Shown here piece by piece: positions 14,247 through 63,205 of a DNA stretch of 64,000 nt (positions within the stretch are counted from its first letter, which is position 1; each line of letters opens with the position of its first letter). The position numbers were made by a program, and so were the translations under genes. The notes beneath the pieces are model-generated. The model worked only from the letters and a program-made list of their open reading frames with translations. It had not been told where the DNA came from and ran no database searches. The DNA comes from Apus apus (Eukaryota; Chordata; Aves; Apodiformes; Apodidae): NCBI RefSeq assembly GCF_020740795.1, contig NC_067294.1:4960001-5024000 (forward strand), read 5' to 3'.

Positions 14247-14358
14247 ATGCCCAAGGAAAAGTACGATCCACCTGATCCACGGAGGATGTACACAATTATG
14301 TCCTCAGAGGAAGCAGCCAACGGGAAGAAATCACACTGGGCAGAGTTGGAAATAAGTG
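14247..14358 (+). CDS. CNOT6: CNOT6 first coding exon, residues 1-38
   Basis: The acceptor ends at 14244, the ATG follows after GA, and the donor is AGTG|GTAAGA. It encodes the conserved N-terminus MPKEKYDPPDPRRM up to WAELEISG. The start codon is fixed by this family-typical N-terminus. Confidence 0.96.
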
Positions 14359-17300: not shown

Positions 17301-19974
17301 CGTTTGATAGCAATCACCCGTTTTATGTCATGCCAAGTCAGGTTTCCTCTCTTACAGTTCTCTTTCCAGACTCTTTCACAAATCTTTGAGGTATTTTTCT
17401 CTAAGCAATACTGTAACACAAAAAATTTATTTTAGCTCACAGTAAAGTAGGCAAAAGGTAAAATTAAACATTCATAATAATGCTAACTACATTTTTTCTC
17501 CACTTTATTGATCTTTATTTTTTGTTTATTTTACAAGTGCAGCAACTTGTCTAATACCATCTTCTTCCCACCTTTGCTATCATTCCCGTGCAAACTGGGG
17601 AGGAGAAAAAAAATTTTCTAAACACACCTTTTTATTTTTCCTCTCAATTTTAGAATAACAAGATGTGCAAAGTTTGCATAGAATGATACCTCCTTTTTGA
17701 AGTGAAACACACAGTGATGCCTATTTAGATTATAATGAAGGCTGCAGTGTTTCACTTAGTAAAAACACTTATGTAAATACTTCATGATTTATGTAAGAGT
17801 AAGTATTTACAGGCAACATTCTTTTGCCCTTAACCCAAAGGAAGAGCCTTATCTTACATTTACTAAAGTTACCAGTAACTGTCGTTGTTGCTTTTAATTT
17901 TGAAGACATTTATGGACAGCTTTCTCAAATCCAGAAAAGACTGAGTCTAAAAGTAATGAGAATGTTATTGGAAGTAAAGAAGACAATAGAGAAAAGGACT
18001 GCCAGCACAGCTTTAATGAAACTGGAAGCAAAGCAAGTTTGCACATAGAAATATCAGTCACTGCATTTTCTGCTAGTTTAGAAAAAGTCCACTCTGCTGG
18101 GGAGGATTCAACCAGCTGATTAAATTGATACTAAAACCTAAAATTCCAAAGCAGCTGGAGTCTCAACCTTGGAGGCTGAGCAAAGGGACCTTGCTTTCTA
18201 GAGCATAATTTGCAGCTCTGTTTCATGGTGTGTTCTATGGTTGTTTTGATCTGTGAAGTAGCCTGTTCTAAAGAAAGCTTTTAGTCACTATTTCAGTTAA
18301 AACCAGCTATTGGTAACAGGTTGCTTCCTTCCTATATCCATGCCTAAGGTGTTGTGAGCTAGCAATTCTGAATTTACTGGAACAACCTCAAATTAATCTT
18401 TGGACTTCCCTAGCATCACTTTTGTTTTCATCACTCTTCTTCCTTTTAAAATATTGCTGTAAATGTAATACTCATGACATGGAGCTAGCTTGGTACTGCG
18501 TAGTTGTCAGTAGTGCCAAATGCTGATAGGCCTTTTTCCCAATTCATTCCGGATGATTCTATGAAATTTCAGCTCTTCCAAGCCCTAGATCTCTTCTGAG
18601 TACAGAAGGCTAAATCTTGTGAATGTGCAATGTGTAGCTAAGTTCTAGGATCACACTAGTTTTCTATTTTTGTCTTAAACATAACACTTGAATCCAGGTC
18701 TCTAGACGTGAAAAGCTAGTGCATTAATCCACTGTGTGCTCTGTCCTCAGTAATTGCAGCTGATCCATAGTTTCTTTTCATGGGGATGAAAGTGATAAAT
18801 TAAAAACCCTAAGTGCATCCTATGTGATAATGCTCTGCAGGTCTCAGCTGTGCTGGAGTTTAATGTTTCAGGCTGGCTCTTACTGCAGACACTTCCCATG
18901 GCTTCTGGGAAGCTGTTCAGACTGATGGTAATTGAGCACTGGGTATTGCTGATATGCTGAGCCACAGAGATCATTTGTGCTGGTGCAGCTGAGAACTGAT
19001 AACAGGTCTTGCAGCTCCCACATCTGGAGCTCTGGGTTTGGTCTGCATGGCAAAGCTTGCCTGGGGCTCCTTGCATCTCCCTTCTTACTGCAGGTACCTG
19101 AAGAAGGAGGTGTAAGAGAGAGCAGTGAGATTTGTGGTCTTTGTGGAAAGAGGAGAAAAAATAAGCACTGGCATGTTATCTTGGAAAGCTCAGCTGTAAA
19201 ACGGATTCTCTTGATATGCTTGACAGAACTGGTGGGATTTGCTGTGATCCCCTTTACTGTGTAGAGGGGGTGGGTTCTGCAGAGGCAAGGATCATTAGGG
19301 AAAATAGTTCTTTCATCCAAGTGAGAAAATGTAACGACACCTACTGCTGTGCCATCCTAGATTTTGTATATCTTCTTTGTAATAGCTACAGAACTTTAAT
19401 TTCAGCAGTGCTTTGAAAAACTCTTAGAGGAAAAAGTAGCTTCCTAAAGAAGAAATTAGTAGCTTTGTAATGTCATATAGAATATAATTGTAAAAATATT
19501 AGCCATTTAAGTCCCAAATGGCCTTGGAAGTGCTGAGAATTAGTGGAGATGTTGTTTATTCTTCTTTAACTTTCTCATCTGCCTCATTCATATTTAGAAG
19601 CCCTAGAATGGCACAGTGGGCTTCTGAATTTCTCTCTAATGATGTGCTTTTCTCTGTGGGATTTTGTATTGAAATAAACCCCAGCTGCCTGCGTGTGTGA
19701 TAGTCTGTCAATCAGTTGAGCAATGGTTTGACATTTCTAGATAACCCAGTGAAATAAAAAGGAAGTCACCTCCTGTGTCTTTCACACTTCCACACCTCAG
19801 TTTCTCAAAAACAAGCCACTTTTACCAAAGTTTATAAATATGCTGTGAAACACAGATAATTTCTCAGAAAGTCCTTGTTAGGGAAGGACCAGTCAGAGTT
19901 TACTTCTGAAATGCAAAGCTAGAAATAGAGATGTGACCCTAGCTAAAGTAACTCTTGGTATCCAGGTTGCCTTT

Positions 19975-20007
<33 letters not shown>

Positions 20008-23000
20008 CCTCAAAATACTTTTCAAGTCTCAAGGCACCAAGTTGTAAACATTTTGAAACAGTAACATTACACTGAATGTGATGAGGAAGGTCTTCACTGC
20101 TGAGATGGGAATGCATTTCAGAAAGTGAAAAGCTTCTTATAAGTCCCATCTTCTCAGTCCAGTTCATTGGAATATCAGAATTCAGGACATGAGTTCTGTT
20201 CCTGTTTGCATATTATTTTTGTAAGTTAAAAAGCCCTTATTTTGTCTTAGCACTGAAATTATGAAGCAAACAACAAAGTTGCTCCTGTAAATTACTCTGA
20301 CACAGTAATGTCACAGTTCTGATCTCACTGCCTTGGTCTTGGATTTTTTGTTTATTGTGGGATATAATTTCCCTTTATTTGGCCTTTACTCATAGCTGAA
20401 CTGTTTCATTGTCTGGTTTGTCAGAGCTGTTACTGCGTCACCACTTGTAGTTATTATTTAGTTATTGCTAATGTTTACAAAATTTCTGACTTTTAAAGAT
20501 GAACTCGCCAAACAATCCCTTTCCTATACTCCAACATAATGTATATTTTGTCTATATGTGTGTGTTTGTATCCAGCAGTATTTTCCTGTTCTGTTTAGTC
20601 TCTGAAGTTTTCAATATTGTGGTTTGCTGGCATATTGTTTCTGTTGTAGTTAAGCTTCTTGTACTATACTCCTAAAGACAAACGTTGCTCTGTTTTCAGC
20701 CCTTTATGATTCTTGATCTTTCTGCAGGGAACTACATTTAAATAACAACCTGTTACGAGTTTTACCTTTTGAGCTGGGAAAACTGTTCCAGTTACAGACT
20801 TTGGGTCTGAAAGGTATTGCTACTTTTTCTTGGTATCTGTACTTTGTTTAATGATACTGATTCTGAGATGTGATGGCTGTGGACTGCTAGTTCATAAAAT
20901 GTTGCTGAATCCCAGGTGTGTAGCTACTTACTTCACATTTATAAATACTGTTATTTAGGAATTATTTTTTAAAAAAATATCAAAAACAACACAAAAAACC
21001 CAAGTTTGACAAAGCACTCCGCATATAAAGAGGTTTGCTTCTCTTTCTGCAGAGGGAGAGGAAGCTTTTGATTGCTTGGGATTGGACACAGAGCTGCTTT
21101 AACTAAGAAACAGTCTGCAGTGACTATAGGTATTCAGCCAGAAAGGGAAAGTGCTTTGTACTGCTGCAGGGCACTGTGCTGTTCACGCAAGCAGCAATTT
21201 AAATATTTCTCCATTCATTTTTTTTTCCTCTGAACTATATGGATTCTAGCTTTAAAATTGCTATCCTTGAGGGAACCTGTGTCACAGAATCAGGAGCACA
21301 GATTGATGTAATACCTCTAAACACTGTTAAGCCTCAGAAGTCTGGCTTTCTTCCCCTTAAAACTGGATAATTGCAACGTGTGTTGCCTTTGAAAACTTTT
21401 ACAAGGTGCTTACACATTGGGCAGATCATAGACTCTACTCAAATATGACTGGCAACCTGGTGATGGATGTTCCACTCATGTTAAGCAAAGTGAGCAGAGG
21501 AGGCTCCTGTGTTTGGCCTCACCAGCTCTGCCTTTGTGTTGACCACACCAATTCTTCGCCTCTGTGAGAACCAACAACCAGCCTTGCAGTGGTCACTCAG
21601 AAGACAAACCCAGGAGGGAACGTTGTTACCTTCACTAGAGCTATTCACACATCTAGTGTTCTATGGGATTGAAGACCTGAGATCCAAAACCTCTAAGTAG
21701 TTCATAGTAGATGCACTTTCTCATCTTGGAGGTGCCAGCTTTAAAGGCTGATGTGTAAGTTCATACTTGTTCTGTGTATTTCATACAATATTTCTGAAAA
21801 TCTGTTTGCAGGAAACCCACTAACACAGGATATTCTGAACCTTTATCAGGAACCAGATGGGACGCGAAGGCTACTGAACTATTTGCTTGATAATTTGGCA
21901 GGTACTGCAAAAAGAAGTAAGTGAACATTCTTAAAACATTCATTTTGGCTGTGTAAAATAAATTTGATTATCACTTGTTGTATCTCTATTTTTAAATGTT
22001 CCCATAGTTTCAACAGAACAGCCACCTCCAAGATCTTGGATCATGTTGCAAGAGCCAGACCGTACAAGACCAACAGGTACTGTAACACTTCAAGAAATTT
22101 TCCTTGTATTTTTGTTTTCCTTTTATAAAAGGTGTTGATCTTTACTAGCTACTGAAAAAAAACAAACCCAATTAGTGCTTAAATTAACCAATCATCTGTG
22201 CAGTGCTGACCAGCTGGCTAATCTCAAATGGAACACATGTTCCAGATTTACCCATCACTTCATTTAAAGTAATTTCTTTTTAATTAATGTCCTCCTCACA
22301 GGAATTTAAACTGTTGTCCACAGTTAGTTAAACAGGAATTATAAAAGGCTTAATTGAGCATTTGTTGAAAAATGAAAAAAAAATGAGACTGTGAGCATAA
22401 TTTCCCAAAATTGTAGATTTTTTATTTTTTTTTTTTTAGTAAGTGATGTATCATCTTTGACTCAGCAGGTCATGTTTAATTGTTTACTGGTTTGTGGGTT
22501 TTTTGCATGATTAGTGTAAAATGCAGCCTTTCCTATTTACCTGCACACCAAGAAGTGTATTTCTCCTCTCTTTCCAAACTGCTGTACATTGCTTTCCCCT
22601 ATTGATTTTATTAAGATGGTTGCTTCAAAGCTCATTATGTGAATGCAGCTTGTCTTTTCCTGTCACCTACTTATTTTCAAATTGCTAGGCTTTGACCCTC
22701 AATCAGCCCAAGATTCTTGCCTCAATTTGCTAGACCTTCAAACAACTGTCTTGTTTCTTTTCCCTGAGCTGTGCTCCAGGTTTGAGTGGAGCTTCCCAAT
22801 AAGCTTCTATGCTTTCATACTGAGAATTTCTTAGTGCTTTTTAAAAACTAAAAAAAAACCCCCACAACAAAACAGAACCCTGAATCCGTGCTGCTGGATT
22901 ACCTGCCAAGTTGCCCCAGACTGTCTCATTATCATTGTTCCAAATTAATACAGAGAGTAGTTATTTCTTGACACTGGAATTGTCAGATTTTGAGGTGGAA

Positions 23001-26000
23001 ACATTTGGGGTTTTATTTCACCTGTACTTTTTTCATGGTGCAAAGGGATCATTGCCCTGTCTCTAGATCTTTTACAGTTTGTGGTGGTATAACGAAGGTA
23101 GATTTTGAATCTGTTTGAAGAGCTTTGTATAGCTATCAAATGTCAGTGTACCAATGCACTTACCTTGTTTTATGCTTTTCACAGTAGAGCACCTCTTAGC
23201 ATGAAGTAGGTTTGCCTGCTATAGTAAACTGCACTAACCATAAAAAGAGGGGGGTTGGTTTTTGTTTTCTAATTACATGCTAGAAGACAGATGCCAGAAG
23301 TCCAAACTTGTAATTTATCTTCTTAGGACTAACAATTATTTGTTTTCAGTATTGATACACAAGCTGTGCTTTGATTGAAGCAGATGAAGCATGGATTGAG
23401 AAATCTGCAGAAGACAAAAGTGGAGAACATAATTGTAGATACATGTATTTTGTTGTTGTTAAATATATCAGCATGTGAGTAGAATTCTTGTTCTGCAGCT
23501 TTGTTCTCTGTCATGTGTTACAACGTACTCTGTGATAAATACGCTACCCGGCAGCTGTATGGCTATTGTCCCTCCTGGGCATTGAACTGGGAATACAGAA
23601 AAAAAGCCATTATGCAGGAAATCCTGAGCTGCAACGCTGACATCATAAGCCTTCAGGTAAAAGATATTCTATTACTTCTTTTCCATTTCTATTCCCACGG
23701 GCTGGTTTCTCTATATTAAATGTATTTACAGTAAACGGTCTGTTTGCAAAAGCACCTGAGAAGGAAAGAAAAAAGAAGTGGTGTTTAGAACGTTATTTGT
23801 TGCTTGACATCAAAAGAATGTTTTTCAGCCTACATGGCTGGAATGGGAACCAGCAGCTGCTGATCAAAGCAACGTACATGGGGGTGTCTTTGTGCCTGTG
23901 TGTGTATGTGGGGATGTAATTGACACATTTTCAAATAAAAGGCTTGAGATAATCGTAACCCTGGGGATTACAGAAATTCATTTATATTTTCTTAAAATAG
24001 GAATGTTGCTCTCAAATTTGCATTCTCTGATGTATTTAATTCTTACTTTTTTTCCCCCCCAAATCTAATTTGAAAGTGATTTACACTTCTGAAGAGTCTA
24101 AATAATGTCAGTCCTCTGGATTTTGCTAGTAGTACATTCATGCTGTGCTGTCTTATAACTTCACAGGAGGTTGAAACGGAACAGTACTACAGTTTTTTCC
24201 TCGTAGAGTTGAAGGAACGTGGCTACAATGGATTCTTCAGTCCAAAATCTAGAGCTAGGACAATGTCAGAGCAGGAAAGAAAACATGTTGATGGTTGTGC
24301 AATATTTTTCAAAACAGAAAAGTAAGTGATGTGTTTTGCAAAGCCTCTGTTGTGTCCTGCTCTCTTGCGTGTAATTTCTCAGGTCAGTCTGTAGCTCAGT
24401 TTGGCATTAGTCCCCTTTTTGTAGCCATTCAGTATTTCTGGTAAAGCATTGTTCTGGTTAGAAAGAGTGGACTGGATGAGAAGAATCATTCTGTGCCTCA
24501 GTAGCAATAGAAAATTTTACCATGACGTTCTATTCAGGTTGAGGTTCATTCCATTAGAGCAAAGTGTGTTAGGAGGCCACTGAATTATACTTCAATTGTG
24601 GAGTGTGTCTGTCCCAACCATTAGATGCTAATAAGGACAAGTGAAGGAAATGTCTTGTTTTCTTCCTTTTCTTTGATTGAAGAAATTGATAAGCCCCAAA
24701 ATTGCTGAAATAAGACCTCAGATTACTTTGACTTCTTGATGCATCAGCCTTCTGATAAAGCAAAAGACAAGGCACTTAATATCACTGCTGGCTTCTAAAA
24801 AAAAAAAAAAAAAAAAGCCATTATTTAAGAGCTGCAGCAGTTATTGTGTCATATTGTACTTGCACAGCTGTTAGGTTCTAAGGGTAATAATTTCTCTTCC
24901 TCCTCATGCTTTCATTCTTTTATGTCAACAAGTAAATGTAGGTGCCAGGTTTGATTCCTTTTGGCTTAGAAAAATTACTTGTTCTATTAAACCTGTGTCT
25001 TCGAACTAGAAACTGGTGCAGAATTAGAAACAAGCACTCCTTTCCTATGGTTTCTGTCTCTCTAGAAATAAAACCTTTAATTGAAATTAAGGTTGTATAA
25101 AATATATAAAAATGTCTGGGAAGACTATCTTTTAAGTTCAACTTAGGAATTTAGGAAATTATGTGATTGGCTGAGATTTTCACATCATAAAGGTGTTTGA
25201 ACTTTAATTAAGAGGAGAATTACCTATAACATTTGTATTTAGCTGCTGAAAAAAACCCATATATATGTTGTTTCTCTTCCAGATTTACTTTGGTTCAAAA
25301 GCATACTGTTGAGTTCAATCAACTAGCTATGGCAAACTCAGAAGGTTCAGAAGCCATGCTGAACAGAGTTATGACAAAAGACAACATTGGAGTAGCTGTG
25401 TTGCTAGAACTGCGAAAGGAATTGATAGAAATGTCATGTAAGTCCTATTTAGTTTTAATATTTTAATGGATTATATGGTGTAAATGAAAAAATTTGATTT
25501 ATTTATTTTTTTATAGTAAACCAGAAAAACTAGGCTCTGCAGATGACTACAACTTTGCACCTTGTATGCTCAGACATCAAAAGAGGATTTGGGGAAAAGT
25601 CATACTGCTTAAATGGTCAAGATTTTTTTCCACTTTTACCTTTTTGCTTAGAAAATACAAAGATTTGAGTTTGAGTGATTTTTATTTTATTTATTTTTTT
25701 TTTTTGCCTGATGTTACGTACAGGTGTCAAAGTGTCAGTTGGTGTTAGTCACGTGTTTCTGGGTTATGTATTTGCATCATTTTAGCTTGTTTTTTCACTG
25801 TCATGCTTATACAACCTTGTCTTTCCTGTTATTCTTCATTTAGGAAATGTAAACTGGCTTTATAAGTATCACAGTGGGTACCTACTCAGTCTGTTACATT
25901 TCTCCAAATGGTTGTTTATTAATTCAAATTTTAATAAACAAGCTTTTTAAGAAGCACTTCTAGCAAGAGGTGACTTTATAACATGGATAACTTAAAATTT

Positions 26001-28427
26001 CAAGTTCATTGTCTGATAAAATACGAGCGGTCTGTGTTTATTATCACAGCCTGAGGAAAACTTGTTAATTTTTAAAACCACACTGTTTTTCTTTAATTAG
26101 GATTATCTGTTATTTATGTTAATTCACAGTATTCTTAGGTACGTTAGCATTACCTGGAACAAGATAGTCTGTTAATGGTCTTGAGTGTGATTAGAGACCA
26201 TTGATATAAAGCATTCAAGAACATCAACTAAAACACTGAGTAGATATAAGAGAGGTTGTTTGACCCTCTGCAACTAAATGGCATTAACCCTCTTCAAGTT
26301 AAACTGGTTGTTGTTTTTTTTCCTCCCCTCAAACATCTTGTTTAAAGTTCAATAATAGGTTTTTATGCTGTCTATGTAAGGTAAAAAATTGGTTCTTAAT
26401 TTTAGCTGGAAAGCCACATCTTGGGATGGAAAAGCAGCTAGTTCTTGTTGCTAATGCACATATGCATTGGGACCCAGATTATTCTGATGTGAAGCTGGTT
26501 CAGACTATGATGTTCCTGTCTGAGGTAAAGAACATTATTGATAAAGCTTCTCGTAGTCTCAAACCTGGTGTTTCGGGAGAACTTGGAACCATTCCACTTG
26601 TTCTGTGTGCAGATCTCAATTCTCTACCAGACTCTGGTAAGAGTTCTATTTCTTACTTATTTTTAGACTGTTTCAAGTGTGTAACGATTTAAATGTTAAG
26701 CTCTGACTTTTAAAAGACTGTTCAACTTGGGGAATATGTTGTTTGATTTCATAAGCTCTAAAGGCACTAAGAAAATAGGAGAAAGAGAGAAAAGATAGAA
26801 CTGTTTCTTTTGTGAGAGGCTTCATGCCTATACAGTAGTGTAGCTGTATCTGGTGCTTCAGAGGCATTTTCATTGCTATAATACAGGAATGTAAAGAAGA
26901 AAATATCTTCCAAAAATAACTAGTCAGTTTGGCTTTGCAGCCTTTTTGAAGTTAAGTTTATTTGATGTAGTGTCACAGAAGCTGGCTTTTTTGCAATATT
27001 TTAGCTGAAGAACATAGGAAGCCAAGACTTGAGCCCAGAGAGGAGGAAGCTGCACATCTCAAGCACCTATAGAATTTTACTTGCACTTCTTTAATCTTTG
27101 CATCCAGTCAGTCAGTTCCTAATGAACCTTCTAGTTTTTTCTAACTATAGCATATCTCAGTTTGTTGTAGGTGATATTTGCTCTTGACATGCAAATACAT
27201 TGTCTTGAAATACTTTATAAGAATAACTAGTGACTGTGTTGTATAAGTGTTGAGGTTTTGCTTTTATAATGCCTAAGGTTGCAGGTATGACTCAAAATGA
27301 CAACACACCTCCTGAATGCACATTAATACCTTCTTGTGTGTATGTGCCTCTCCTCACAGGTGTTGTTGAGTACTTGAGCACTGGTGGAGTGGAAACAAAC
27401 CACAAAGATTTTAAGGAACTGAGATACAATGAAAGTCTTACTAACTTCAGCTGTAATGGGAAAAATGGAACAACAAATGGAAGAATTACACATGGTTTCA
27501 AGTTGAAGAGTGCCTATGAGAATGGTCTAATGCCTTATACAAATTACACATTTGATTTCAAGGTAAGGAATTGGCTGAAGTTTTGGAAAAGTTCCATAAA
27601 CTTGTTTGACAAAGATTGTAACCCATTTGGGCAGCTAACAGTAAACTCACCAAATTTATATTTAAAACATAGTGAACTAGATTGCTCAACACTTCAGTCT
27701 CCTGGAAACCAAATATTCCTTTTTCTTGTTAGTACCTTGTAATAGATTTGCAGGAGCTGGGGTGCTGTTAACCTTCCCTGAAAACAGGAAGATTTTGTAT
27801 TTTAATACTCCATGCTAAATGAAATTATACAAGAGAGGCACTTAAACTGTCAACTGCAAGGAAATAATCAGTGTTGCTACTGGAAAACTCAGAGCTTTGT
27901 TGCCCAGGGGAAACAAAGATGGCTCTTTTCCTCTCCAAAATCAGAGGAATGTGATTTGAAGCTTTTGTAGGAGGCTGGAAATGACAACCAACAAAAGCAG
28001 AGCAGAAGTGATACTTTTTCTTTTGTTTTCCTAGTCATTATTGAGCAGCCCATGGGATATAGCAAGCAGAATGCTCCTAAATAGATGATGTTCTCTGGAG
28101 AAGGAATAGCAGCATTTCACTTGCTGATAATACTGAGCTCTCCTTTTGTTTGGAACAAAACCTTGAGTCAACAATATATACTAATAATTCATTTTATTTC
28201 TTCTCTTGTTTTAGGGTATTATTGACTACATCTTCTACTCTAAACCTCAGCTAAACATACTTGGCATTCTTGGACCTTTGGATCATCATTGGTTAATAGA
28301 GAACAATATAAGTGGTTGTCCCCATCCACTCATCCCTTCTGACCACTTCTCACTTTTTGCACAACTGGAGCTTTTGCTGCCTTTCCTGCCTCCTGTAAAT
28401 GGAATCCATCTCCCTGGCAGGAGGTAG
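14247..28427 (+). CDS. CNOT6: CNOT6 (CCR4-NOT transcription complex subunit 6, CCR4a deadenylase)
   Basis: Joined exons: 14247-14358, 16847-17033, 20728-20813, 21812-21916, 22008-22076, 23499-23656, 24167-24321, 25283-25437, 26406-26636, 27360-27562, 28215-28427. They total 1674 nt, i.e. 557 residues plus TAG, the length of vertebrate CNOT6. All introns are GT-AG and every codon phase closes. The product is a Mg2+-dependent poly(A)-specific 3'-5' exonuclease that shortens mRNA tails within the cytoplasmic CCR4-NOT complex. N-terminal leucine-rich repeats (about 45-130) bind CNOT1. The endonuclease/exonuclease/phosphatase fold follows (about 187-540), with N195, E240 (SLQEVE), H361, D412 and N414 (CADLNSLPDS), and D530-H531 (PSDHFS). 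It is CNOT6 rather than CNOT6L: it starts MPKEKY without the longer CNOT6L leader, and has SEGSEAMLNR, NGTTNGRITHG and the IHLPGRR end. Confidence 0.97.
16847..17033 (+). CDS. CNOT6: CNOT6 coding exon 2, residues 38-100
   Basis: The acceptor is CCTCCCTCAG and the donor CTCAG|GTGTGT. It encodes the first leucine-rich repeats (LTALHLSDNSLSRIP and LVYLDLSSNKIRSLP), the CNOT1-binding part of the protein. Confidence 0.96.
20728..20813 (+). CDS. CNOT6: CNOT6 coding exon 3, residues 100-129
   Basis: The acceptor is TTTCTGCAG and the donor GAAAG|GTATTG. This 86-nt exon encodes the next leucine-rich repeat (ELHLNNNLLRVLPFELGKL). It is too short to stand out as an open frame and was found by phase and protein continuity. 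Confidence 0.95.
21812..21916 (+). CDS. CNOT6: CNOT6 coding exon 4, residues 129-164
   Basis: The acceptor is CTGTTTGCAG and the donor AGAA|GTAAGT. It encodes the end of the leucine-rich region and the linker (NPLTQDILNLYQEPDG to LDNLAGTAKR). Confidence 0.95.
22008..22076 (+). CDS. CNOT6: CNOT6 coding exon 5, residues 164-187
   Basis: A 69-nt micro-exon with acceptor TTCCCATAG and donor ACAG|GTACTG. It encodes STEQPPPRSWIMLQEPDRTR, the linker into the nuclease domain. Only a 91-nt intron separates it from the previous exon. Confidence 0.95.
23499..23656 (+). CDS. CNOT6: CNOT6 coding exon 6, residues 187-239
   Basis: The acceptor is TTCTGCAG and the donor TTCAG|GTAAAA. It opens the nuclease domain with MCYNVLCDKYATRQLYG (N195 near the active site) and ends at SLQ, just before catalytic E240. 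Confidence 0.96.
24167..24321 (+). CDS. CNOT6: CNOT6 coding exon 7, residues 240-291
   Basis: The acceptor is ACTTCACAG and the donor AAAA|GTAAGT. Its first codon is E240, the metal-binding glutamate of EEP nucleases. It continues through VETEQYYSFFLVEL, SPKSRARTMSEQERKHVDGC and AIFFKTEK. Confidence 0.96.
25283..25437 (+). CDS. CNOT6: CNOT6 coding exon 8, residues 291-343
   Basis: The acceptor is CTCTTCCAG and the donor TCAT|GTAAGT. It encodes FTLVQKHTVEFNQLAMANSE, EAMLNRVMTKDN and the strand GVAVLLEL. Confidence 0.96.
26406..26636 (+). CDS. CNOT6: CNOT6 coding exon 9, residues 343-420
   Basis: The acceptor is TTAATTTTAG and the donor CTCTG|GTAAGA. It carries the active-site motifs VANAHMHWDP (N359/H361) and LVLCADLNSLPDSG (D412, N414). 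Confidence 0.96.
27360..27562 (+). CDS. CNOT6: CNOT6 coding exon 10, residues 420-487
   Basis: The acceptor is TCCTCACAG and the donor TTCAAG|GTAAGG. It encodes VVEYLSTGGVETNHKDFKEL, a GKNGTTNGRITHG loop typical of CNOT6, and PYTNYTFDFK. Confidence 0.96.
28215..28427 (+). CDS. CNOT6: CNOT6 last coding exon, residues 488-557
   Basis: The acceptor is CTTGTTTTAG. It encodes GIIDYIFYSKPQ, the catalytic PSDHFSLFAQLEL (D530-H531) and the C-terminus IHLPGRR, followed by TAG at 28425-28427. Confidence 0.96.
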   Translation, partial: GIIDYIFYSKPQLNILGILGPLDHHWLIENNISGCPHPLIPSDHFSLFAQLELLLPFLPPVNGIHLPGRR

Positions 28428-42084: not shown

Positions 42085-43921
42085 GCTCAGTGTGACTGTT
42101 TTATTCATTTTCTCTGTCAAAAGCAGCAATACATGCAGTTGGCACAAGACTTGCTAGGCATCAGTTTCATAAATATTCACGCGGAGAGAAATCAAAATGT
42201 CAGCAGGGCCACGAGGAGAAGCATCAGCATGACCTGAACCCCAGTGTTAGCCTCAGAAGGAAGGGAAGGACGCGGAGGAGGCTGAGCAGGCTGGCACCTT
42301 CCTCGATTCAGCTCTTGCCATCAGCTCTAATAAAAGCTGGAGTCACCTCCACTTTAGTTCTTGCTGTGTGTGTGTGGTTGGGTCGAAAAAAAATGATGAG
42401 AAGCAGTTCAGCTCCATAATGAGGGCTAATGAGTTTCAACAAGAGAAAGAAAATATTTGAGGTAAGAGGTGTGAGAACGAGAAGCTCAAGTATGTTCATC
42501 TTTTGATCCTCAGGCATATTTACACTCATGTTGGTACTGAGCAGAAGGTGCCTTCTGATTCAGCTGCTCAAGTGTGGTTTAGAAATGGCTTGTGAACGTT
42601 TTTATAATTGCAGCTTTCCAATGGTGTTTCCCATCTTAGCTACAGCTGCACCAACAGCCTGGTCCTCTCTCTTCTGTGCCAAAAGATTTACTCCTGGTAG
42701 CAGCAGTAATAATTATGCTAGTATTGCTTTGCAGTTTTCTCACCTACTTTCCTTGGCTGGTTACAGAGTGTGGCATCAAACACGGGTGTGTGAGGTTGCT
42801 CTGACTGCAGGAGCAAGTGCTGATAAGAGGTTGTCTGGATGGAGAAGTCACCACAAGCAGCCAAGGATGACCTGGATGCTTGGTCCCCAGGTACCACACC
42901 AGGATCTCACAGTGCAGGAATGTTGCTTTTCCTACAGACACCCCCTGTAGCGTGGACATCAATAGAATTGGTCTATATGTGTTATATGCTGGATGGTTGT
43001 AACATGCATGTGTTTTTTTCATGTTTCAGTGTCAGAACCAGGCAAAGAACAGTCAGCATGGTCAGGCAGGTGAGAATACAGAAGCACAGATATACACAGA
43101 AACCCAGAAATGATGAGTTTACATTCAGGTAAATACCAGAGTGGTGTCTGGGTTTTGTACAGCTGGCATGGCAGGTGGTTCCAGCTCCAAGCCAGCTGCA
43201 GCACTGGCACAGCAATGCCCACCCAGAGCTCCTGGCTCTCCTCCTACCAAGGATAAATCAAGGAGTAAAGGTAACAGGGTTGTGCCAGGGTGAGAAGAAA
43301 ATCCCCACCCAGAGGAGCTGCATTATTCTCTATCTTGCTCTCTAGCAAATCCTCATAAAAGTCTTCTTCAGATTTAAAATAATGTTTCTTTATGCTCCTG
43401 CACAAACAGATGACCTCTTCAGGAGTTTCTGGTGTTGATTCAGGGATCTGTACTGGGTGTCCTAGTCAATGTGTCTGTCAGAGAGCACGTCATACTGTCG
43501 AAACACTGGTCAAAATGTTCCTTTCAGAATAACTGTCCAGATGTGAGCAGCATCTGGCTGTTGGCATTTGTTGGAAAACACCAGTGGATTGATGTTCCTG
43601 CAGATCTCCTCCAGAACAGATGGGGTTTGTACTCTCTCCAGGTTTTCTCTGTGCTCAGTGCAGCTATAGGCAGTAGGGGAGGGGAGGTGCTCTATGAACT
43701 GTTGCCTTTCCAAAATGAGAACTGGTTGCTGTTTTCTTGGTGGATGAGATTCTGAATTGTCCCTTTGCCCATTGATGAGGGATATATATGATGAGTCACA
43801 AAGTCTGCCTGACTTGCATGCACATCCAAGCCATGTTTTCTGTGTAAGGACTCCAGGGAGAGCTTCTAGAGCACAGGGTGGTTGTATCTTGGGAATAAAA
43901 TTATTCTGAGCAGCTACTTCT
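42085..43921 (-). other. probable 3'UTR of the DEPP-like gene
   Basis: This follows the TGA of the DEPP-like frame on the minus strand, about 1.8 kb to the first AATAAA on that strand. No other gene is visible in it. The length is an inference from the poly(A) signal alone. Confidence 0.4.
42100..42105 (-). terminator. candidate poly(A) signal of the DEPP-like gene
   Basis: AATAAA on the minus strand, the first canonical hexamer downstream of the stop codon. A CATAAA variant near 43391 could serve a shorter transcript. Confidence 0.35.
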
Positions 43922-44905
43922 TCACACTTCAGCAATGGCTGGGAGCAAACAAGCTTTTACCTTTGCTTCTTTCCAGATGGATCTGTGCTCTGAAATCCAG
44001 CTATGGATCATGGCTTTTTTAGCTGCCTGGAAGCACTGGGAGTATCTCTGCTTAGTGAGGACATCGTTTTTGTCACGGTGAGAGTTTTCTCTCCCTTCTT
44101 TTTCGTTGGTGCCACCTGTATTGAACAAACAATTCTGCCACCTTACAGAGCAGGGCAAGGATGGGTTTCCCAGCAGCTTTCCTCTGGCTGAGCATGGTGA
44201 TGACTCTTCACCAGTAATGAACATGGGGCTGTTTTCTCTCTGACCATGGTAACTCCCTAAAACTGCTCCCTCATCTCTTCGAAGATACTTCAGCTCTGAG
44301 CAGCCTGCTTCTTTCTGCAGTGGTCTTGGGGAGGGAAGCCTTGGAAAACTGAACACTCGTGGCAAATTGGGTTTCCCCGCAACTTTTTCTTTTGTAGTTT
44401 GGGGGTGAAGTTCAGTGTTGGGGGAGGAAGAGCTGCACTGTGAGTAACTTGTGCCAGAGCTTTTACCATACGAAGTAGCCTTGGAGGAGCAGAGCTTTCC
44501 TGTGCATGTGTAGATCTGGGCCAGGGGGTCATCTCTGGACCAGAAGTCAGCTTCTGCAGGTGTGAATTTTCCAAGTGGCACCACATTTGAGATGAAATTG
44601 GTCAACTTACATTTTGAATTTTCTGGCTGTGTCCCCCCAGGGGTTGAGGTCCATGACACTTCTTCAAGGGTCTTCAAGGCCTTTCTGCCCTGAGCCTTAC
44701 GGCTGCTTTCAGGAAGGCCTGGGAAGGTGGGTCTGGCAAGATGGCAGATGGATTGGATGTAATCGTCGCTGGAGTGCAAGTCCGGGCAGGCTGCAGTGCT
44801 GCCTGTGCGCCCCGTGTGGCTGGTTGAATCTTCCAGTGCTTCCTCATGGCTTTCACGTATGGTTGGGAGGGACTTGGAAAGGCTCAGTCTTATCTGGGGT
44901 GCCAT
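43922..44905 (-). CDS. DEPP-family protein (DEPP1-like)
   Basis: An unbroken frame of 327 codons plus TGA, far longer than chance here. The start is the ATG at 44905: a consensus acceptor (TTCTTTGCAG) ends two bases before it, and upstream in-frame codons would be intronic. Family evidence: SLPTIRE at residues 12-18, with the same spacing from the start as in human DEPP1; SSDDYIQSICHLARPT at 45-60, matching the DEPP DDYVRSI-x-x-LAQPT motif; RDDPLAQIY at 125-132, resembling DPLDWLFG; and an LPAIAEV end at 321-327, resembling LPVIHEL. No signal peptide or membrane segment; the rest is Ser/Pro/Lys-rich and probably disordered. Human DEPP1 is about 212 residues, so this protein is clearly longer. 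DEPP1 is a FOXO-, progestin- and hypoxia-induced regulator of autophagy and oxidative stress. I assign the family, not a proven function. Its location between CNOT6 and ADAMTS2 suggests a paralog of DEPP1 rather than DEPP1 itself. Confidence 0.8.
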   Translation of the reverse strand: MAPQIRLSLSKSLPTIRESHEEALEDSTSHTGRTGSTAACPDLHSSDDYIQSICHLARPTFPGLPESSRKAQGRKALKTLEEVSWTSTPGGTQPENSKCKLTNFISNVVPLGKFTPAEADFWSRDDPLAQIYTCTGKLCSSKATSYGKSSGTSYSQCSSSSPNTELHPQTTKEKVAGKPNLPRVFSFPRLPSPRPLQKEAGCSELKYLRRDEGAVLGSYHGQRENSPMFITGEESSPCSARGKLLGNPSLPCSVRWQNCLFNTGGTNEKEGRENSHRDKNDVLTKQRYSQCFQAAKKAMIHSWISEHRSIWKEAKVKACLLPAIAEV

Positions 44906-45068
44906 GACTGCAAAGAACAGACCAGACATTATCAGCATGAGCAAGCCAGGAAAAGAAATTCAGGGCTTGCTTCTGTAAAGTTCACCTCCTACCTGAGCCA
45001 CCTCATGTTTTCTTGGGGCAAGCAGCAGGGTTTATAGAAACTGCATTTTCATAGTTTGCTGGCAGGAC

Positions 45069-45075
45069 TTTTATA
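45069..45075 (-). promoter_or_regulatory. TATA box, possible alternative promoter of the DEPP-like gene
   Basis: GGATATAAAAGTCC on the minus strand contains a consensus TATAAAA. About 30 bp downstream a start near 45044 would give a first exon ending at the donor CTCAG|GTAGGA (exon end 44993) and an 84-nt intron before exon 2. In that transcript an upstream ATG (minus strand, near 45006) opens a frame that overlaps the main ATG out of phase. This makes it less attractive than the upstream CpG promoter. Confidence 0.35.
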
Positions 45076-45662
45076 TCCTTGGCTTCGTAAAGAGCCCGTA
45101 TATACAAAGAAGCCAAGTGATCGAGTGCAGCAGAAAAGAACAGGTTCACTAAAGAGATCAGCCAGGGTGCTCCCCTCTGAAGACTGAGGATTGCAAGGGG
45201 TGGGCAGCTGAGGCGGTGGGGTGCAGGGCACTCCCTGGGTTGTAGCAGCAAGGGACAAACTCCTCCAAACTGCTCTCTTTATTTAACACTCCACTGATCT
45301 GTTCACTGTGACAGGGCTCTGACTTCACTTCGCGTCTGAACTGGCAAGAGCTGATCTCACCAGGAGAGGAGCTCACATACTTCGTGGGGAGCATCACGGA
45401 AATGAAGTGACATTACAGCTGATCTCTTCTAGAAGCTGTAGGTGCAAATGTTTTTTGTCTCTGCCAGTGGTTCCTAAGTGTAGTTATGGGGTGGTGGATC
45501 CTTCCCTGAATGCTTACGTAGAGCCAAAGGGATTTAACTCATGTTCTTGATATTCAAATAGTTATCCTCAATTCTTTTTAAGGTGGATTTCCATCTGGTC
45601 CCACTAGTTAGAGAAACCTTTTTTACAAATGTTTAATGTTGCAATGTTTTCTAACTGTACAG

Positions 45663-45686
45663 ATTTATTTATTTATTTATTTATTT
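45663..45686. repeat. (TTTA)n tetranucleotide microsatellite
   Basis: Six consecutive ATTT units. It lies within the DEPP-like intron and may vary in length between individuals. Confidence 0.9.
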
Positions 45687-46648
45687 TCTCAAAATACTTC
45701 TACCTTGTGCTTTGCTTATCTCCCCTTCTGGCAGAAATGACCACATAGCCTGGATCCAGTTTTTTTTGTTTTTTTTTTTGTATTATCTTCCCCTCCCCAG
45801 TGGAATTTGTATGTGAATAATCTGCCGACACAATATAGCTTTGTTGTGTGTTTAAACCAAAAAGTGTTCTGCCGGCTATTTTAGTGCCTTGCTTGTCATG
45901 GCTGGAAGTAAATCTGGCTCTGTTGAATCTCTCTGTGAAGCTGCACATCACACAGGGAGCACAAGTGAGCAGCTCATGCTGAGTCCAGGGCAGAGCTTGT
46001 GGGATGTCCATCCCTTCCCTGGCTTTGACTGGTTTTCCTCTCAGGTGCTACTGGTAAAGTCAGTCAGGCTGGGATTTGCTGAACTGAACATGGGACTTGT
46101 TTGTTTTAAACCTTCTGACCTTTTCATTTCTTTTTCTTTATTCTGCCTGCCCCTTTCTTCTCAGTTCTTTAAGCACCAAGCAGGGGGTTTGCTCCTCTGC
46201 CTTCCCTCCCAGCCCTTGCCCGAGCCCAGCGGTGTCAGGATCAGGGGCTGCTCTGGCCCTGGGGCCAAGGGGGCAGCCGGATGCTTCAGAAAATGAGTCG
46301 TGTTATCTTATGATAGTGCTAATCATTAACTAAGTCCTGTCAATGTGCCCTTCCTCCGGAAGGAAATTAGATTACCTATTTACAGGAAAACTCTTCCGAT
46401 GGGTGGATGGGTTCCAGCCTGGATACCGGCCCCTTCACCCCCGGCACTGCACTGGGCTGGCCCCTTCTGTGCCGAGGTCACCTTCCCGCTGGCACCCACC
46501 ACCCCATCCTGTGGGCACCCAGCAGCCCCCGGAGAGCACGAACCCCCTTTCCAGCCACCCTGGGAGCATCCCTGGCTGCAGCCATCCCGGGTCCTTCCCA
46601 GGACACATCCCGCATCCACATCCCAGCGTTCGGATGTCCTCCCCTTAC

Positions 46649-46770
46649 CTGCTCCGCAGCCCGGTGAAGAGACACGGGTGGCTTCTTGTCTCCCCGGCTC
46701 TCCCCGGCCCGGCAGCGGGATGTGCTGCCCGGCTCCAGCCCGCGCTCCAGCCTCCCGGCAGCGGATCCGG
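46649..46770 (-). other. candidate non-coding exon 1 of the DEPP-like gene
   Basis: The 3' border is the strong donor GGAGCAG|GTAAGGGG (exon end 46649). The 5' border is set about 30 bp below the TATA-like element, so it is approximate. Splicing to 44907 places the ATG two bases into exon 2, the same layout (5'UTR exon, then one coding exon) that I recall for human DEPP1. Confidence 0.5.
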
Positions 46771-46792
46771 CTGCCCGGGATGTTGCGGTTGC

Positions 46793-46800
46793 TAAATATA
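46793..46800 (-). promoter_or_regulatory. TATA-like box of the DEPP-like gene
   Basis: TATATTTA on the minus strand, in GGGATATATTTAGC, within otherwise GC-rich DNA. On the plus strand the same bases (CTAAATATA) resemble an MEF2 site, so the role is not certain. Confidence 0.45.
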
Positions 46801-46899
46801 TCCCGCTGGCTGCCTGCCCTGCCCGGGAGCCCGCGCCTGGCAAGCGCTGTGTAGCATCGGGACAGCCAACGGGCACCCGGGCCCGTTCCCAAGGGGCTG

Positions 46900-58355: not shown

Positions 58356-58819
58356 TTAGTTTCTTTTTCTAAGAGTCTCTTTTTTCCTTTTCTCCTCAAT
58401 CAGCTCCTGAATTCTTTGATTCCTTGTCCTTTCATAAGGTATCCTCCTCCGTGTAATGATGTTGTGCTGCGACACCTCGTTATCCAGCCCGTGGATTTTA
58501 TAGGGAACATCCACAGCATTGATTTCTGGGTGCTCCTCAGTTGCATTGGAAGGAGGTGCACGCGTTTTGGAAACAAGAGGAGGGCTGGTGGCAGCCTGTG
58601 TGGTGGACACTCCCACAGGAGGGCTGAGGGTTGTCGGGAGCTCCTCCTCAATCACATTATTCTTATTTAGGTTAGAACTGGTTACATTGTTGTCCTCTGT
58701 TAGGTTGCTGTACATGTTACAGGACTTGCAACACAGCTTATTGTAACCAGGAATTGAGCAGTAACGAGAGAGAACCTCCATGCGACAGAACATTGACTTG
58801 TCTCCTTGACAATGAGCTT
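58356..58819 (-). CDS. ADAMTS2: ADAMTS2 last coding exon: PLAC domain and C-terminal tail
   Basis: The acceptor is TTTCTCTTTCAG (AG at 58821-58820). The exon contributes two bases of the junction Lys codon and then 153 further residues to TAA at 58358-58356. All six PLAC cysteines are present. The stretch between PLAC and [12 protein letters not shown] is low-complexity and differs most from the mammalian protein. An open frame continues upstream of 58819 but is intron. Confidence 0.93.
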
Positions 58820-61800
58820 CTGAAAGAGAAAAAAGGATCAGATAAATAAAGAGCATCTTCACATTGATCAGAAAAAGAAACACAGCTGAAGCTTTGGCAG
58901 TGGGCAGAGGGTTTGGTATTTAGTAGGATGGAAAACTGGCAAAAGAGCCTTCTTTAGACAGAAGCAGGCTTAGTATTAAACCTAAAACCCGTATGAAGGG
59001 ACACGAAAGCTGATCTGAACTCTGTGTATCAGCCCCATCCACATTACAGACCATAGCACTCTGATCTTTGCTCCACACTGATTTTTGGCTCCTCACTCTG
59101 GAAGTGATGCCCTGAAGACCGTGCAGCCACAACCACCTGCGTTCCTGCCTTGGCTCAGAGGTTGAAACACACCAAAAGTGCTGTTTGTTGCTATTCCTGC
59201 CTTAAACTTCAAGAAAGTCATCAAGGTTTATATTGAAAATACCTTTTTTTCGTCCCCTTTTTCTCCTTTTAATGCTTTTCTGTAATCTAACAGTGACTAA
59301 CCACAGTCAAGCCTGTTTTATTTTTATATATATATTTATATTTCTCTGGACTGCCTCAAGAGAGTCAAGCCCGTTTCTATGTGTACAGTGTAACACTCTG
59401 AATTAATCCATCTCCCACTGGAGTGATTTTTTTTGGCCTGAAAAGAGCAGCATTGCCTGAGCAAGTCCCTTGCTTGAGAGAAAAGTGGTGCATTTAGCCT
59501 AAGGCTTTTCTCCTCCCAGAAGGGAGCTGATATTGCCAGAACAACCAACTCCAGTTGGATGGAGCCGCTGGGAGTGACTGGGAGACTCAGTAACAAGTCC
59601 TGATTTTTATGTCACTGACTGGAAAACTGTCCTAAAGGGAAAAAGCAGTAACTGATAGGTTTGAAGCTGACGATAGATGTTATGACAATCATCTGCATTG
59701 TCATATAGATGTAACAGCAGATCCTGATTGTGCTGGAATACAGGTAACACAAGGTAGGCTAAGGTGTTCCAGGGGAGCTGGTCACACTGTTTTACTGTCT
59801 GAGAAGCATTAACAGGCATCTACTCAGAGACCACTCAAGCCCCTGTGATTTCTGCTCAGAGGAGGTAGTGGATGGTATGAATGGATATAAGCTGAGGGGC
59901 TAGCAGGCTCCTCTGAGAGAAGCTACCTGTCCTCTGTCCTACTTACACACCTTACAGCTCCTGTGCCTCCAGGCTGAAGTGACGGTGCCAGGAACTACCG
60001 GGAACTGCACTGGAGGAAAATCCCAACATACAGCCCATGCTGAAAGAAAGAGGAGCCAGAGGGCTTGTAGGAGAGGAGAGGGCTGAGGAGAAGAGCAGAC
60101 TGACCAACACTTGGCATAATCAGTAACAAAACATTGCCTCTGTGACCAGACATGAAATCACTTCTGCCTCTCTCCCTGCTCTAACTACATTTCCACCTAC
60201 TCTTACAGTAAAGGATGAGTAACTCCAATCACTTGCCTCTATTTTGAGCGTGCTCAAATCAGCTCCTGCTTCCCCATCCTGCTGCAAACACTGACCTACC
60301 CTGCCAACAACCTTTCAGCCAAGACAAGAACCAGAGATACCAAGTGAACTCAGAAAGTGCAAGTGTTGCTGCTTCACTCACCCCCAGTTAACAAAATAGG
60401 GCATTATAGGTGTTTAATTGGCAAACATAGCAGTCTCAAATAAATTAATAACTGTTGCTGCTGCTTTAAAATACTTGTGCTGGCTGAGAAAGGTGTAAAC
60501 ACCTTCCCTGCCTTGTATTTATACCCCAATTGTTGCATTTGTTGCAGAAAAGCAAAATTCAGGTTCCTATTTTCAAATGTTTTAATTAATTTTCATACTT
60601 TTCAAATGTTAAACCCAGATGCTGCTGGGAATAAAAAACAAATCCTTCCTTAGGAACCTAAGAATAGTACCTTGATTTTGGAGACATTTTCAAACCAGTC
60701 TTTAAGAGCTGGAACTGTTCATCTCTGCATGCACAACTCTATACAAAGGACTTCATGTACCTATATAACTTTATATAGATTTTTTACATACCATGTAGAG
60801 TCCCCTTTGAACATTTTGCCTTGCGTTGCATGACCTTAATGCAAGCTGCTCCAAATAGCTTGCAAAATAAAAGCCAACAGGTATAACATTTAAATGTAGT
60901 TTCAACAAGGCAGATCTGTTCTTGGCTTTGTAAAAATCACTAAAAGCACCTTTAGAAAAATGCCTTTTTTCCCCCTATCAAATATATGTAACGCCAAGCT
61001 TAAAAAGACATGAAAATAAAACTGCATTATAGAATACTTTTAGTGACACCTGATAAGTTATATAAATAAACTTTGTAGCTTATGAATGTCAGAATGAAAT
61101 TTTTATCCTCCATGCAAACCAAAATACCCAGATTTGCTGAACTTTTATTTATTTTTACTTGCAGTATGCATGACAGACTGGAAGTATATCTTCAAAACAT
61201 CAGTAAGAAAAAAATAAATCAGTTTCACAGTCACTTTGGTACACATTAGTCTCTTAAAAAAATATTGAAAAGCAAACTGAATTGGCACATCTTTAATATT
61301 ATGTTAAGTACATACAAAACACTAATAAAATATCCCTGATAAACCAAAGTGCATATAGACATAGTGCACAATGCCCAGATACCTTATTGCACCATTCTCT
61401 ATAGCCACCCATCTCTTGAAACATCACTAAACATTGTCTATTTAAAGGTAACAGTCATGAATATATTTATACAGTTAAACACCAATTATTTTACATAACA
61501 GTATTCAGTGCCAGATACGTGTCTTTGCTTTTTCACCTTGTCATGTAAATTGTTAACATCTTTCAGGAAATTATCATATTAACAGCAAAATTTAAATATG
61601 TGATCACATGATAATGACAAGTTTGAAGTGCTACACTGTTGACGACCCAAAGATTCAAAAATGCCACTTTGCCAAAGAACATGATCAATGCAATAAGGTA
61701 GTAATTTGCTCCAAGACTGCAGAGTTAAAGTTGATACGGTTCTACTACTGGTACTGACTCACAAACAGGTTTATTACTCGTGAAACCCAAATCTCCAACA

Positions 61801-63205
61801 CAAACACGGAAGGTGAAGCAAGAATGCAGTTAAATCTCAGTAAGTCAAGTCACAATCCTGCCTTGATGAAGATGTGGATATGCACTGTGCAAATGAACCT
61901 CAGGTTAACTTTACTGCCTCCTAATAGTTATCATTCAAGTGAAAACACTCCGTATGAAGATTAACTCAAGGTACCAGTGTCCTGTTTATCTTTAAAGCTG
62001 GATCTGGTAAATTAATGCCATTTACATTTCAACATTAAGGCATTTTTCTAAAATTCTTCTTCTAAGCAAAAAAAAAAAAAAAAGCAATAAAAATTGAGGT
62101 AATTCTGTAGTAGTTCACACTGTTATGTTTGCCAGTTGACACATCTATAGAGCACACACACGCACACATACAGCCGCACCAGTCAAGTCAGACATGCACA
62201 TGGTGAAAAAAGACCAAAGATGTAATGAGTATAAACAGCTCCATGTCAAGCAGCTGGAGACATCATAGTTGATGAAAACATCATATTGCCTCCACCAGGT
62301 TAAGGAAAACACCACCATGCAACCTTCAATGTGGCCCAGGCCTGCTCTGCTTCGGTTTTGTTTCTAAAACTGAAAGTAGGCAAAACCGGCCCAAATGGTG
62401 CAACGGGCAAAGGGACGAGCGGCGCTCAGGGGAAAATATTTCAACCCATCACCAGGAGTCTGGTGAGAGCCACTGGTGTCATAGCAGCATTGAAAGTACC
62501 AACAGAGACTGAGCTTCTGCTTCCCGGTGAGCCCCCCTGGGATACAAACATAAATGTGAGGGTCAGGAATAAAAAATGAGGAGCAAGGGCAAGCAAAGCA
62601 ACGGCACCGCAATGGAATGAAAAAGTTCTTTCACTCATCAGACTACCCTGTCAGTGAACTGAACCTGGAGAGTTATGAGATTTAGGGGGTTTAGATAAAG
62701 GAGAACTTTAGCACTACAAGGTGTCATTATTGTGATGTGATCACATTCACAATAAGTTCTCAGTTTTGTTATCAAACTCAACATCATGAACCAGTAAAGA
62801 GCCTTTTTTCACCATCACCAAGCAACAAGCAAACCGATCCCAGCTCCCTTTCAGAGGACCGCAACATACTGTGGAGATCCAACTTCACACATCCAACACT
62901 TCAAGACCTCCACCACCAGTGCTATGCAAGCTCCAGAGAAGAAAAACACCGAGCACCAAGTGCCTGGTGTGAAAAAAAGATTCAGCCCAAGATTTAAACT
63001 TGGCAAAGTCAAGGGAACTTTCCGCATAGAGAGAAGAAGAGAGCAAAAGGCAAAGTCCACATTCGATGTGGCATGCATTTAAGGGCAAAGGCAGAGTTAT
63101 AAATGGGTCTTTTACTTGAAGATATTTTCTGGATGGGGTAGTCTGGATCAGGTCTTGACAGCCATTGTATCATGTAGGTTTTCTTTGAAGGATCAGAAAC
63201 ATTTC
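58356..63205 (-). CDS. ADAMTS2: ADAMTS2, 3' end (procollagen I N-proteinase), partial
   Basis: Two coding exons (63116-63205 and 58356-58819) join in phase across a 4.3-kb intron to give the C-terminal end of a secreted zinc metalloproteinase that removes the N-propeptide of fibrillar procollagens. What is seen: a segment with [20 protein letters not shown], the junction codon K, then a six-cysteine PLAC domain ([20 protein letters not shown] and LCCKSC), a Thr/Pro-rich linker with N-glycosylation sequons (NLT, NVT, NAT), and a basic tail with [10 protein letters not shown] and [13 protein letters not shown]. This tail identifies ADAMTS2 rather than ADAMTS3 or ADAMTS14. The metalloproteinase, disintegrin and thrombospondin repeats lie to the right of the window. 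Gene order with CNOT6 agrees with human 5q35.3. Confidence 0.93.
58820..63115 (-). other. ADAMTS2: last intron of ADAMTS2
   Basis: A 4.3-kb intron. The part from about 60400 to 62650 is AT-rich and looks like 3'UTR sequence, with minus-strand AATAAA hexamers near 61144-61155. There is a CA-rich microsatellite near 62151-62170 and an A tract at 62068-62083. I saw no repeat copy or nested gene. Confidence 0.6.
63116..63205 (-). CDS. ADAMTS2: ADAMTS2 penultimate coding exon
   Basis: A 90-nt exon, phase 1 at both ends. The acceptor is CTATTCAAG after a long pyrimidine tract, and the donor is TTCAA|GTAAAA. It encodes [15 protein letters not shown], then [14 protein letters not shown], with an NVS glycosylation sequon. 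It links the last thrombospondin repeat to the PLAC domain. Confidence 0.9.

What the first reader, a model, noticed from the sequence alone, without database searches (positions are those of the whole stretch)
43922..46800. A second DEPP-family gene between CNOT6 and ADAMTS2
Seen: a 327-codon minus-strand frame with a splice acceptor two bases before its ATG and motifs SLPTIRE, DDYIQSICHLARPT and a C-terminal LPAIAEV. Known: human DEPP1 (on 10q11.21) has HLPTIRE near its start and a DDYVRSI motif. Human CNOT6 and ADAMTS2 are on 5q35.3, which shares ancient duplicates with 10q11 (RASGEF1A/C, HNRNPF/H1). Inferred: this is an ohnolog of DEPP1 that survived in birds and was probably lost in mammals. 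It is about 1.5 times longer than human DEPP1. I know of no description of it.
Basis: partly seen in the sequence, partly recalled or inferred. Interest (0 to 1): 0.88.

Follow-up and report, generated by a model that had tools for sequence, protein, structure and literature searches.

The report
Divergent DEPP-type gene beside CNOT6
A bird-like genome carries a divergent relative of the mammalian stress gene DEPP1 in a different, anciently duplicated part of the genome, and it may be the only DEPP-type gene left there; if confirmed, birds and mammals kept opposite copies of a pair of stress-response genes.

Summary
The minus-strand frame 43922-44905 (327 codons) begins two bases after a splice acceptor, lies in the longest stop-free run of the window and carries LPTIRE, DDYIQSICHLARPT and C-terminal LPAIAEV. 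It resembles recalled human DEPP1 (BLASTP E 2e-6; 0 of 3000 shuffles as good) and ranks first of 4052 frames from 294 kb of this genome with a human+mouse profile. Pfam DEPP is its only Pfam hit, below the curated cut-off (18.1 against 27 bits); human DEPP1 alone gives a weaker signal, and one chance locus scores nearly as high unfiltered. The gene lies between CNOT6 and ADAMTS2, about 285 kb from RASGEF1C; TMEM72, CXCL12, ALOX5 and RASGEF1A lie on another contig. This fits an ohnolog of DEPP1. No second DEPP and no RASSF4 were found, with weak searches, so two DEPP genes in one species are not shown; a moved DEPP1 is less likely but not excluded, since no other vertebrate could be searched. 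The PTS2 pattern seen in DEPP1 is absent. Most likely it encodes a mostly disordered inducible stress/autophagy regulator without PEX7-dependent peroxisome import (inferred). New variant of a known kind; moderate interest.

The parts
43922..44905 (-). coding sequence of the DEPP-like protein, 327 aa plus TGA, all in one exon
44852..44869 (-). LPTIRE block (residues 13-18), identical to residues 12-17 of recalled human DEPP1
44726..44767 (-). DDYIQSICHLARPT block (residues 47-60), aligned with DDYVRSISRLAQPT of recalled human DEPP1
43925..43945 (-). C-terminal LPAIAEV, same distance from the stop as LPVIHEL of recalled human DEPP1
   Evidence: 4 of 7 identical; 63 of 200000 random draws from the protein's own residues do as well. 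Local alignment of the last 12 residues: 184 of 20000 draws do as well
44908..46648 (-). predicted intron in the 5' UTR (GTAAGG donor, polypyrimidine tract and CAG acceptor)
   Evidence: no RNA evidence
46649..46770 (-). predicted non-coding exon 1; its 5' end is a guess about 25-30 bases after the TATA-like box; no ATG inside
46793..46801 (-). TATA-like ATATATTTA inside a CpG-rich stretch
42100..42105 (-). only AATAAA/ATTAAA between the stop and 40900, possible polyadenylation signal
14247..28424 (+). CNOT6 coding exons (flanking gene, tail-to-tail)
58365..58823 (-). ADAMTS2 C-terminal coding exon with PLAC-like domain (flanking gene, same strand, upstream)
63117..63188 (-). another ADAMTS2 exon

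Best explanation
This is a real, divergent DEPP-type gene and most likely the 5q35-side ohnolog (whole-genome-duplication copy) of DEPP1. This genome, bird-like by its size and small contigs, seems to have lost the 10q11-type copy together with RASSF4. Mechanism, partly inferred: a CpG-rich/TATA promoter makes a two-exon mRNA whose start codon lies just after the intron. The product is a mostly disordered 327-residue intracellular protein. Its N-terminal block (LPTIRE ... DDY[IV]xSIxxLAxPT) and C-terminal LPxIxE tail are the parts it shares with DEPP1, so they are probably its binding sites. By analogy with DEPP1 (FOXO3- and HIF-induced, raises ROS, promotes autophagy of mitochondria and peroxisomes) I think it is an inducible stress/autophagy regulator. 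Without a PTS2 signal it should not enter peroxisomes through PEX7 and more likely acts at mitochondria or in the cytosol. Shown: the frame, splice-site matches, the three blocks, synteny, absence of the PTS2 pattern. Inferred: expression, disorder, function, localisation, ohnology.
For: BLASTP to recalled human DEPP1 E 2e-6, 45% over 56 residues. The recalled human and mouse sequences score 322.9 and 262.1 bits on Pfam DEPP, which validates them broadly. Smith-Waterman 78 against a maximum of 65 in 3000 shuffles. A human+mouse DEPP1 profile, filters off, ranks this frame first of 4052 frames, E 2.8e-5, next 0.39. Pfam DEPP is the only Pfam hit up to E 10, E 0.0031; its model starts at human residue 25, so LPTIRE is independent of it. 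Tail match 63 of 200000. CpG-rich stretch and TATA-like box at exon 1. Paralogon in this genome: RASGEF1C C14:4698286-4719432, the gene at C14:5003922; RASGEF1A, ALOX5, CXCL12, TMEM72 on C5. DEPP1 biology: PMC11361356 and PMC4197242 (passages), PMC13373476 (passages).
Against: Pfam score 18.1 is under the curated cut-off of 27. With human DEPP1 alone phmmer finds nothing among the 4052 frames with default filters and gives only E 0.0093 with filters off, though this frame is still first. In tblastn without low-complexity filter human DEPP1 scores 32.3 bits here and 31.6 at L025 (C15), a locus picked from the whole genome by a DEPP1 query; L025 has no LPTIRE or DDY block and drops out with the filter on, where this gene keeps 25.4 bits. 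Some 260 residues between the N-terminal block and the tail show no significant similarity to DEPP1 (other BLASTP pieces E 1.9 or worse). No second DEPP was found, so a paralog pair is not seen in one species. No transcript, no orthologue from another bird or reptile, no tree. FOX- and HRE-type matches upstream are no more than I would expect by chance. AlphaFold2 without an alignment gives mean pLDDT 40, uninformative.
Confidence: 0.6

Rival explanations
1. It is the species' DEPP1 itself, moved from the RASSF4/TMEM72 region to the CNOT6-ADAMTS2 interval, not a paralog.
For: Only one DEPP-type gene was found and none in the TMEM72 or ALOX5 flanks read. The layout (start just after intron 1) matches that of mouse Depp1.
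Against: The predicted 5' UTR intron argues against a retrocopy. No RASSF4 or TMEM72 match in the window at E 0.5 (only RASSF2 at E 0.044, far off at 9861). A one-gene move would have to land by chance in the block ohnologous to its source. RASSF4 is also not found, so loss of the RASSF4-DEPP1 pair explains the missing DEPP1 without any move.
Confidence: 0.2
2. Both genes exist in this species, and DEPP1 was missed because it diverged, lies in an assembly gap or escaped the search.
For: The genome search is insensitive: human full-length DEPP1 did not report even the window gene, nor did its first 60 residues. Only 50 kb at TMEM72, 40 kb upstream and 10 kb downstream of ALOX5 were read.
Against: A composite DEPP N-terminus, partly of window letters and so biased towards it, found the window gene (24.6 bits) and nothing else. 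RASSF4, recalled as overlapping DEPP1, was not found either although RASSF2 and RASSF6 were.
Confidence: 0.14
3. Chance frame or non-coding RNA with DEPP-like letters.
For: No RNA evidence; Pfam score below cut-off; human DEPP1 alone gives E 0.0093 at best among 4052 frames and a chance locus scores nearly as high without filter.
Against: Three collinear blocks at the right ends of a full-length frame; 0 of 3000 shuffles reach the score; first of 4052 frames with the two-species profile; stop-free run longer than in 60 of 60 simulated 64-kb sequences.
Confidence: 0.06

Closest known systems
[quoted passage not shown] Pfam PF15343 DEPP)
   Same: LPTIRE, DDY[IV]xSIxxLAxPT and LPxIxE tail in the same order; start codon just after a 5' intron (as in mouse; here predicted)
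   Different: 327 against 212 residues (human, recalled); PTS2 pattern RLx5HL absent; middle not alignable; Pfam score under the cut-off; different chromosome block (CNOT6-ADAMTS2, not RASSF4-TMEM72)
RASGEF1A/RASGEF1C pair
   Same: ohnolog pair (recalled as such) split between the same two contigs, here C5 and C14
   Different: both copies are found there; of DEPP only one copy was found

Membership tests
DEPP (PF15343) | score over Pfam's gathering cut-off of 27 bits | tested here: not met
   18.1 bits, residues 41-60
DEPP (PF15343) | DDY[IV]xSIxxLAxPT block | tested here: met
DEPP1 | LPTIRE block shortly after the start | tested here: met
   residues 13-18
DEPP1 | C-terminal LPVIHEL-type tail | tested here: met
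   LPAIAEV, 4 of 7 identical, 63 of 200000 random draws
DEPP1 | N-terminal PTS2 that binds PEX7 (PMC4197242, passages) | tested here: not met
   a loose PTS2 pattern (recalled) is found in recalled human DEPP1 (RLLLSVAHL) and nowhere in the 327 residues; a stricter recalled pattern matched neither
DEPP1 | intron 1 before the start codon, coding region in exon 2 | tested here: inconclusive
   consensus donor and acceptor, CpG-rich exon 1; no RNA
DEPP1 | locus with RASSF4, TMEM72, CXCL12, ALOX5 (recalled for human) | tested here: not met
   window gene is on C14; TMEM72, CXCL12, ALOX5 are on C5; RASSF4 not found
ohnolog of DEPP1 | linkage to other 2R duplicates of the DEPP1 block | tested here: met
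   one pair only: RASGEF1C about 285 kb away on C14, RASGEF1A on C5, 6 to 8 Mb from ALOX5, CXCL12 and TMEM72; MAPK8/9 not answered; HNRNPF/H1 not tested
ohnolog of DEPP1 | sister position to DEPP1 in a vertebrate tree | not testable with these tools
   no other vertebrate sequences held
DEPP1 | induction by FOXO3/HIF/progesterone and effect on ROS or autophagy | not testable with these tools
   needs experiments

The most novel reading that the evidence does not exclude
The 2R duplication left two DEPP genes; mammals kept DEPP1 and lost the 5q35-side copy, while birds kept this longer copy without a PTS2 and lost DEPP1 with RASSF4. The DEPP stress/autophagy role in birds would then rest on a protein that cannot use the peroxisomal import route of DEPP1.
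Probability: 0.44. Interest if true: 0.6.

Novelty: new variant of a known kind. Interest (0 to 1): 0.5.

Why it matters
DEPP1 is studied in mammals as a FOXO3/HIF-induced regulator of mitochondria, peroxisomes and autophagy; no paralog appeared in the rows that my literature searches listed. A second family member would show which short blocks are under long-term constraint, would separate the peroxisomal signal from the rest of the function, and would give a case of reciprocal ohnolog loss between birds and mammals. It could also explain why a search for DEPP1 in a bird comes up empty.

Tried and rejected
Retrocopy of DEPP1: unlikely because of the predicted 5' UTR intron. Longer start in the upstream open frame (43922-44944): rejected, it lies in the predicted intron. 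FOXO and HIF sites: one TRTTKAC and two RCGTG-type matches in 2.26 kb, by my own estimate no more than chance, not used as evidence. Pfam family search of the whole genome found nothing, but its control genomes rang nowhere either, so it is uninformative. Weak genome hits (L002-L006 with P0001; L024, L025, L040, L041 with DEPP1): a motif scan of these nine found no LPT[IV]RE, DDY[IVL]xS[IV] or [ST]LP[TS]I. L025 needed a closer look because it scored 31.6 bits with human DEPP1 without low-complexity filter; the aligned stretch lacks both N-terminal blocks and the hit vanishes with the filter on. phmmer with human DEPP1 alone, default filters: no hit among 4052 frames. PDB and NCBIfam, a prokaryote library: no hits. 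AlphaFold2 on the single sequence: mean pLDDT 40; no fold search was made. Rfam: no match at the gathering score in the window. Eight other long frames of the window: no Pfam match at E 0.01. Literature, search listings only, rows listed of papers found: 20 of 54, 3 of 3, 20 of 95, 20 of 29, 20 of 848, 6 of 6, 10 of 6550; no listed title or abstract start describes a DEPP paralog or this locus. PMC4290089 on genes missing in birds was searched in its main text for C10orf10, DEPP, RASSF4 and ZNF22, none present; its supplements were not read.

The plain title was reworded, since a second gene is not shown.

Full report
What is there. The minus-strand frame at window 43922-44905 encodes 327 residues and is part of the longest stop-free run in the 64-kb window, 345 codons. 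In 60 first-order Markov simulations of the window the longest open run was at most 284 codons, mean 169. The start codon follows a good splice acceptor by two bases. A consensus donor lies at 46649/46648 in a CpG-rich stretch (GC 0.71, CpG o/e 0.73 for 46640-46900, against 0.18 for the window) with a TATA-like box at 46801-46793.

Kinship. BLASTP of the window protein against it gives E 2e-6 with 25 of 56 identities. The best of 3000 shuffles of the window protein scores 65, the real one 78. A profile of human and mouse DEPP1 (mouse also recalled, 262.1 bits on Pfam), run with filters off, puts this frame first of 4052 stop-to-stop frames from 294 kb of this genome, E 2.8e-5, the next at 0.39. 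Pfam itself gives 18.1 bits against a cut-off of 27, E 0.0031, its only hit. The Pfam model covers human residues 25-212, so LPTIRE is independent of that hit. The last seven residues LPAIAEV match LPVIHEL at 4 of 7 in register; 63 of 200000 random draws do as well.

Results against it. With human DEPP1 alone phmmer with default filters finds nothing among the 4052 frames; with filters off this frame is first but only at E 0.0093, the next at 0.18. In tblastn without a low-complexity filter L025, a locus brought in from C15 by the whole-genome DEPP1 query, scores 31.6 bits against 32.3 for this gene. L025 lacks the LPTIRE and DDY blocks and drops out with the filter on, where this gene keeps 25.4 bits, E 0.039 in a set of ten loci. 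So the pairwise score alone would not stand out in a whole genome; the case rests on three collinear blocks in one full-length frame, the two-species profile and the Pfam hit. The 260 or so residues in the middle have no significant match. I call it a divergent DEPP-type protein. By Pfam's own rule it is not a member.

Place. CNOT6 matches lie at 14247-28424 on the plus strand, ADAMTS2 C-terminal exons at 58365-58823 and 63117-63188 on the minus strand. The window is C14:4960001-5024000 of a 1.10-Gb genome in 110 contigs, bird-like in size (inferred; species not determined). RASGEF1C lies at C14:4698286-4719432; six stretches covering eight of its nine matches were fetched, and five of six matched recalled RASGEF1C best, one RASGEF1B. 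RASGEF1B itself was not located. RASGEF1A (C5:26.00-26.03 Mb), CXCL12 (C5:18.23 Mb), TMEM72 (C5:18.11 Mb) and ALOX5 (C5:19.68-19.70 Mb), the recalled human neighbourhood of DEPP1, lie on C5. This is the split expected of an ohnolog, resting on one duplicate pair. MAPK8/9, a further test, did not complete by the machine.

Is there a DEPP1 as well? Queries with the window protein, its first 62 residues, human DEPP1, its first 60 residues and a composite N-terminus found no other DEPP. The two human queries did not report the window gene either, so this search has little power. RASSF4, recalled as overlapping DEPP1 in human, was not found, while RASSF2 on C27 and RASSF6 on C5 were; two weak matches on C1 (E above 0.05) were left unidentified. 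Beside TMEM72, 50 kb hold frames that look like ANKRD22 and an acid-lipase gene (my reading of the letters, not searched) and neither RASSF4 nor DEPP. The 40 kb upstream of ALOX5, with a MARCHF8-like frame (also my reading), and 10 kb downstream hold none. The simplest reading is that RASSF4 and DEPP1 were lost together at a break beside TMEM72. But it is an inference from one genome.

Mechanism. DEPP1 is reported as a FOXO3 target that binds PEX7, carries a PTS2, lowers catalase activity and raises ROS (PMC4197242, passages, some from its abstract), and as a HIF target found inside mitochondria that is needed for hypoxia-induced autophagy (PMC11361356, passages). The window protein lacks the RLx5HL pattern that recalled human DEPP1 shows. 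I expect an inducible, mostly disordered stress/autophagy regulator that works through the two conserved ends, at mitochondria or in the cytosol. The structure prediction without relatives is too poor to add to this.

Novelty. In the rows listed by seven library searches no title or abstract start describes a DEPP paralog (the lists were capped in five of the seven). Subscription journals, preprints and gene databases were not searched, and automatic annotation may already name this gene in birds.

Noticed in passing
own genome C5:18058001-18108000 (L031-L035): TMEM72 is followed by frames resembling ANKRD22 and an acid-lipase gene (my reading, not searched), which I recall on human 10q23; neither RASSF4 nor DEPP1 is there, so a rearrangement or deletion may have removed the RASSF4-DEPP1 pair.
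   Followed up: partly
own genome, all contigs: A human RASSF4 query finds RASSF2 (C27) and RASSF6 (C5) but no RASSF4, suggesting that RASSF4 is lost, unassembled or missed here.
   Followed up: partly
own genome C5:19655184-19655600 (L037, reaching into L038): A MARCHF8-like frame (my reading) lies upstream of ALOX5 on the same strand; in human I recall MARCHF8 downstream of ALOX5 on the opposite strand, so the order may have changed.
   Followed up: no
own genome C5: One 115-Mb contig carries both the 10q11-type block (ALOX5, CXCL12, TMEM72, RASGEF1A) and RASSF6 (recalled on human 4q13), which hints at a fused chromosome in this species.
   Followed up: no
window 44162-44180 and 44368-44386: A 19-base direct repeat, 89% identical and 206 bases apart, lies inside the coding sequence. 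The spacing is no multiple of three, so the copies are read in different frames; it may be chance.
   Followed up: no
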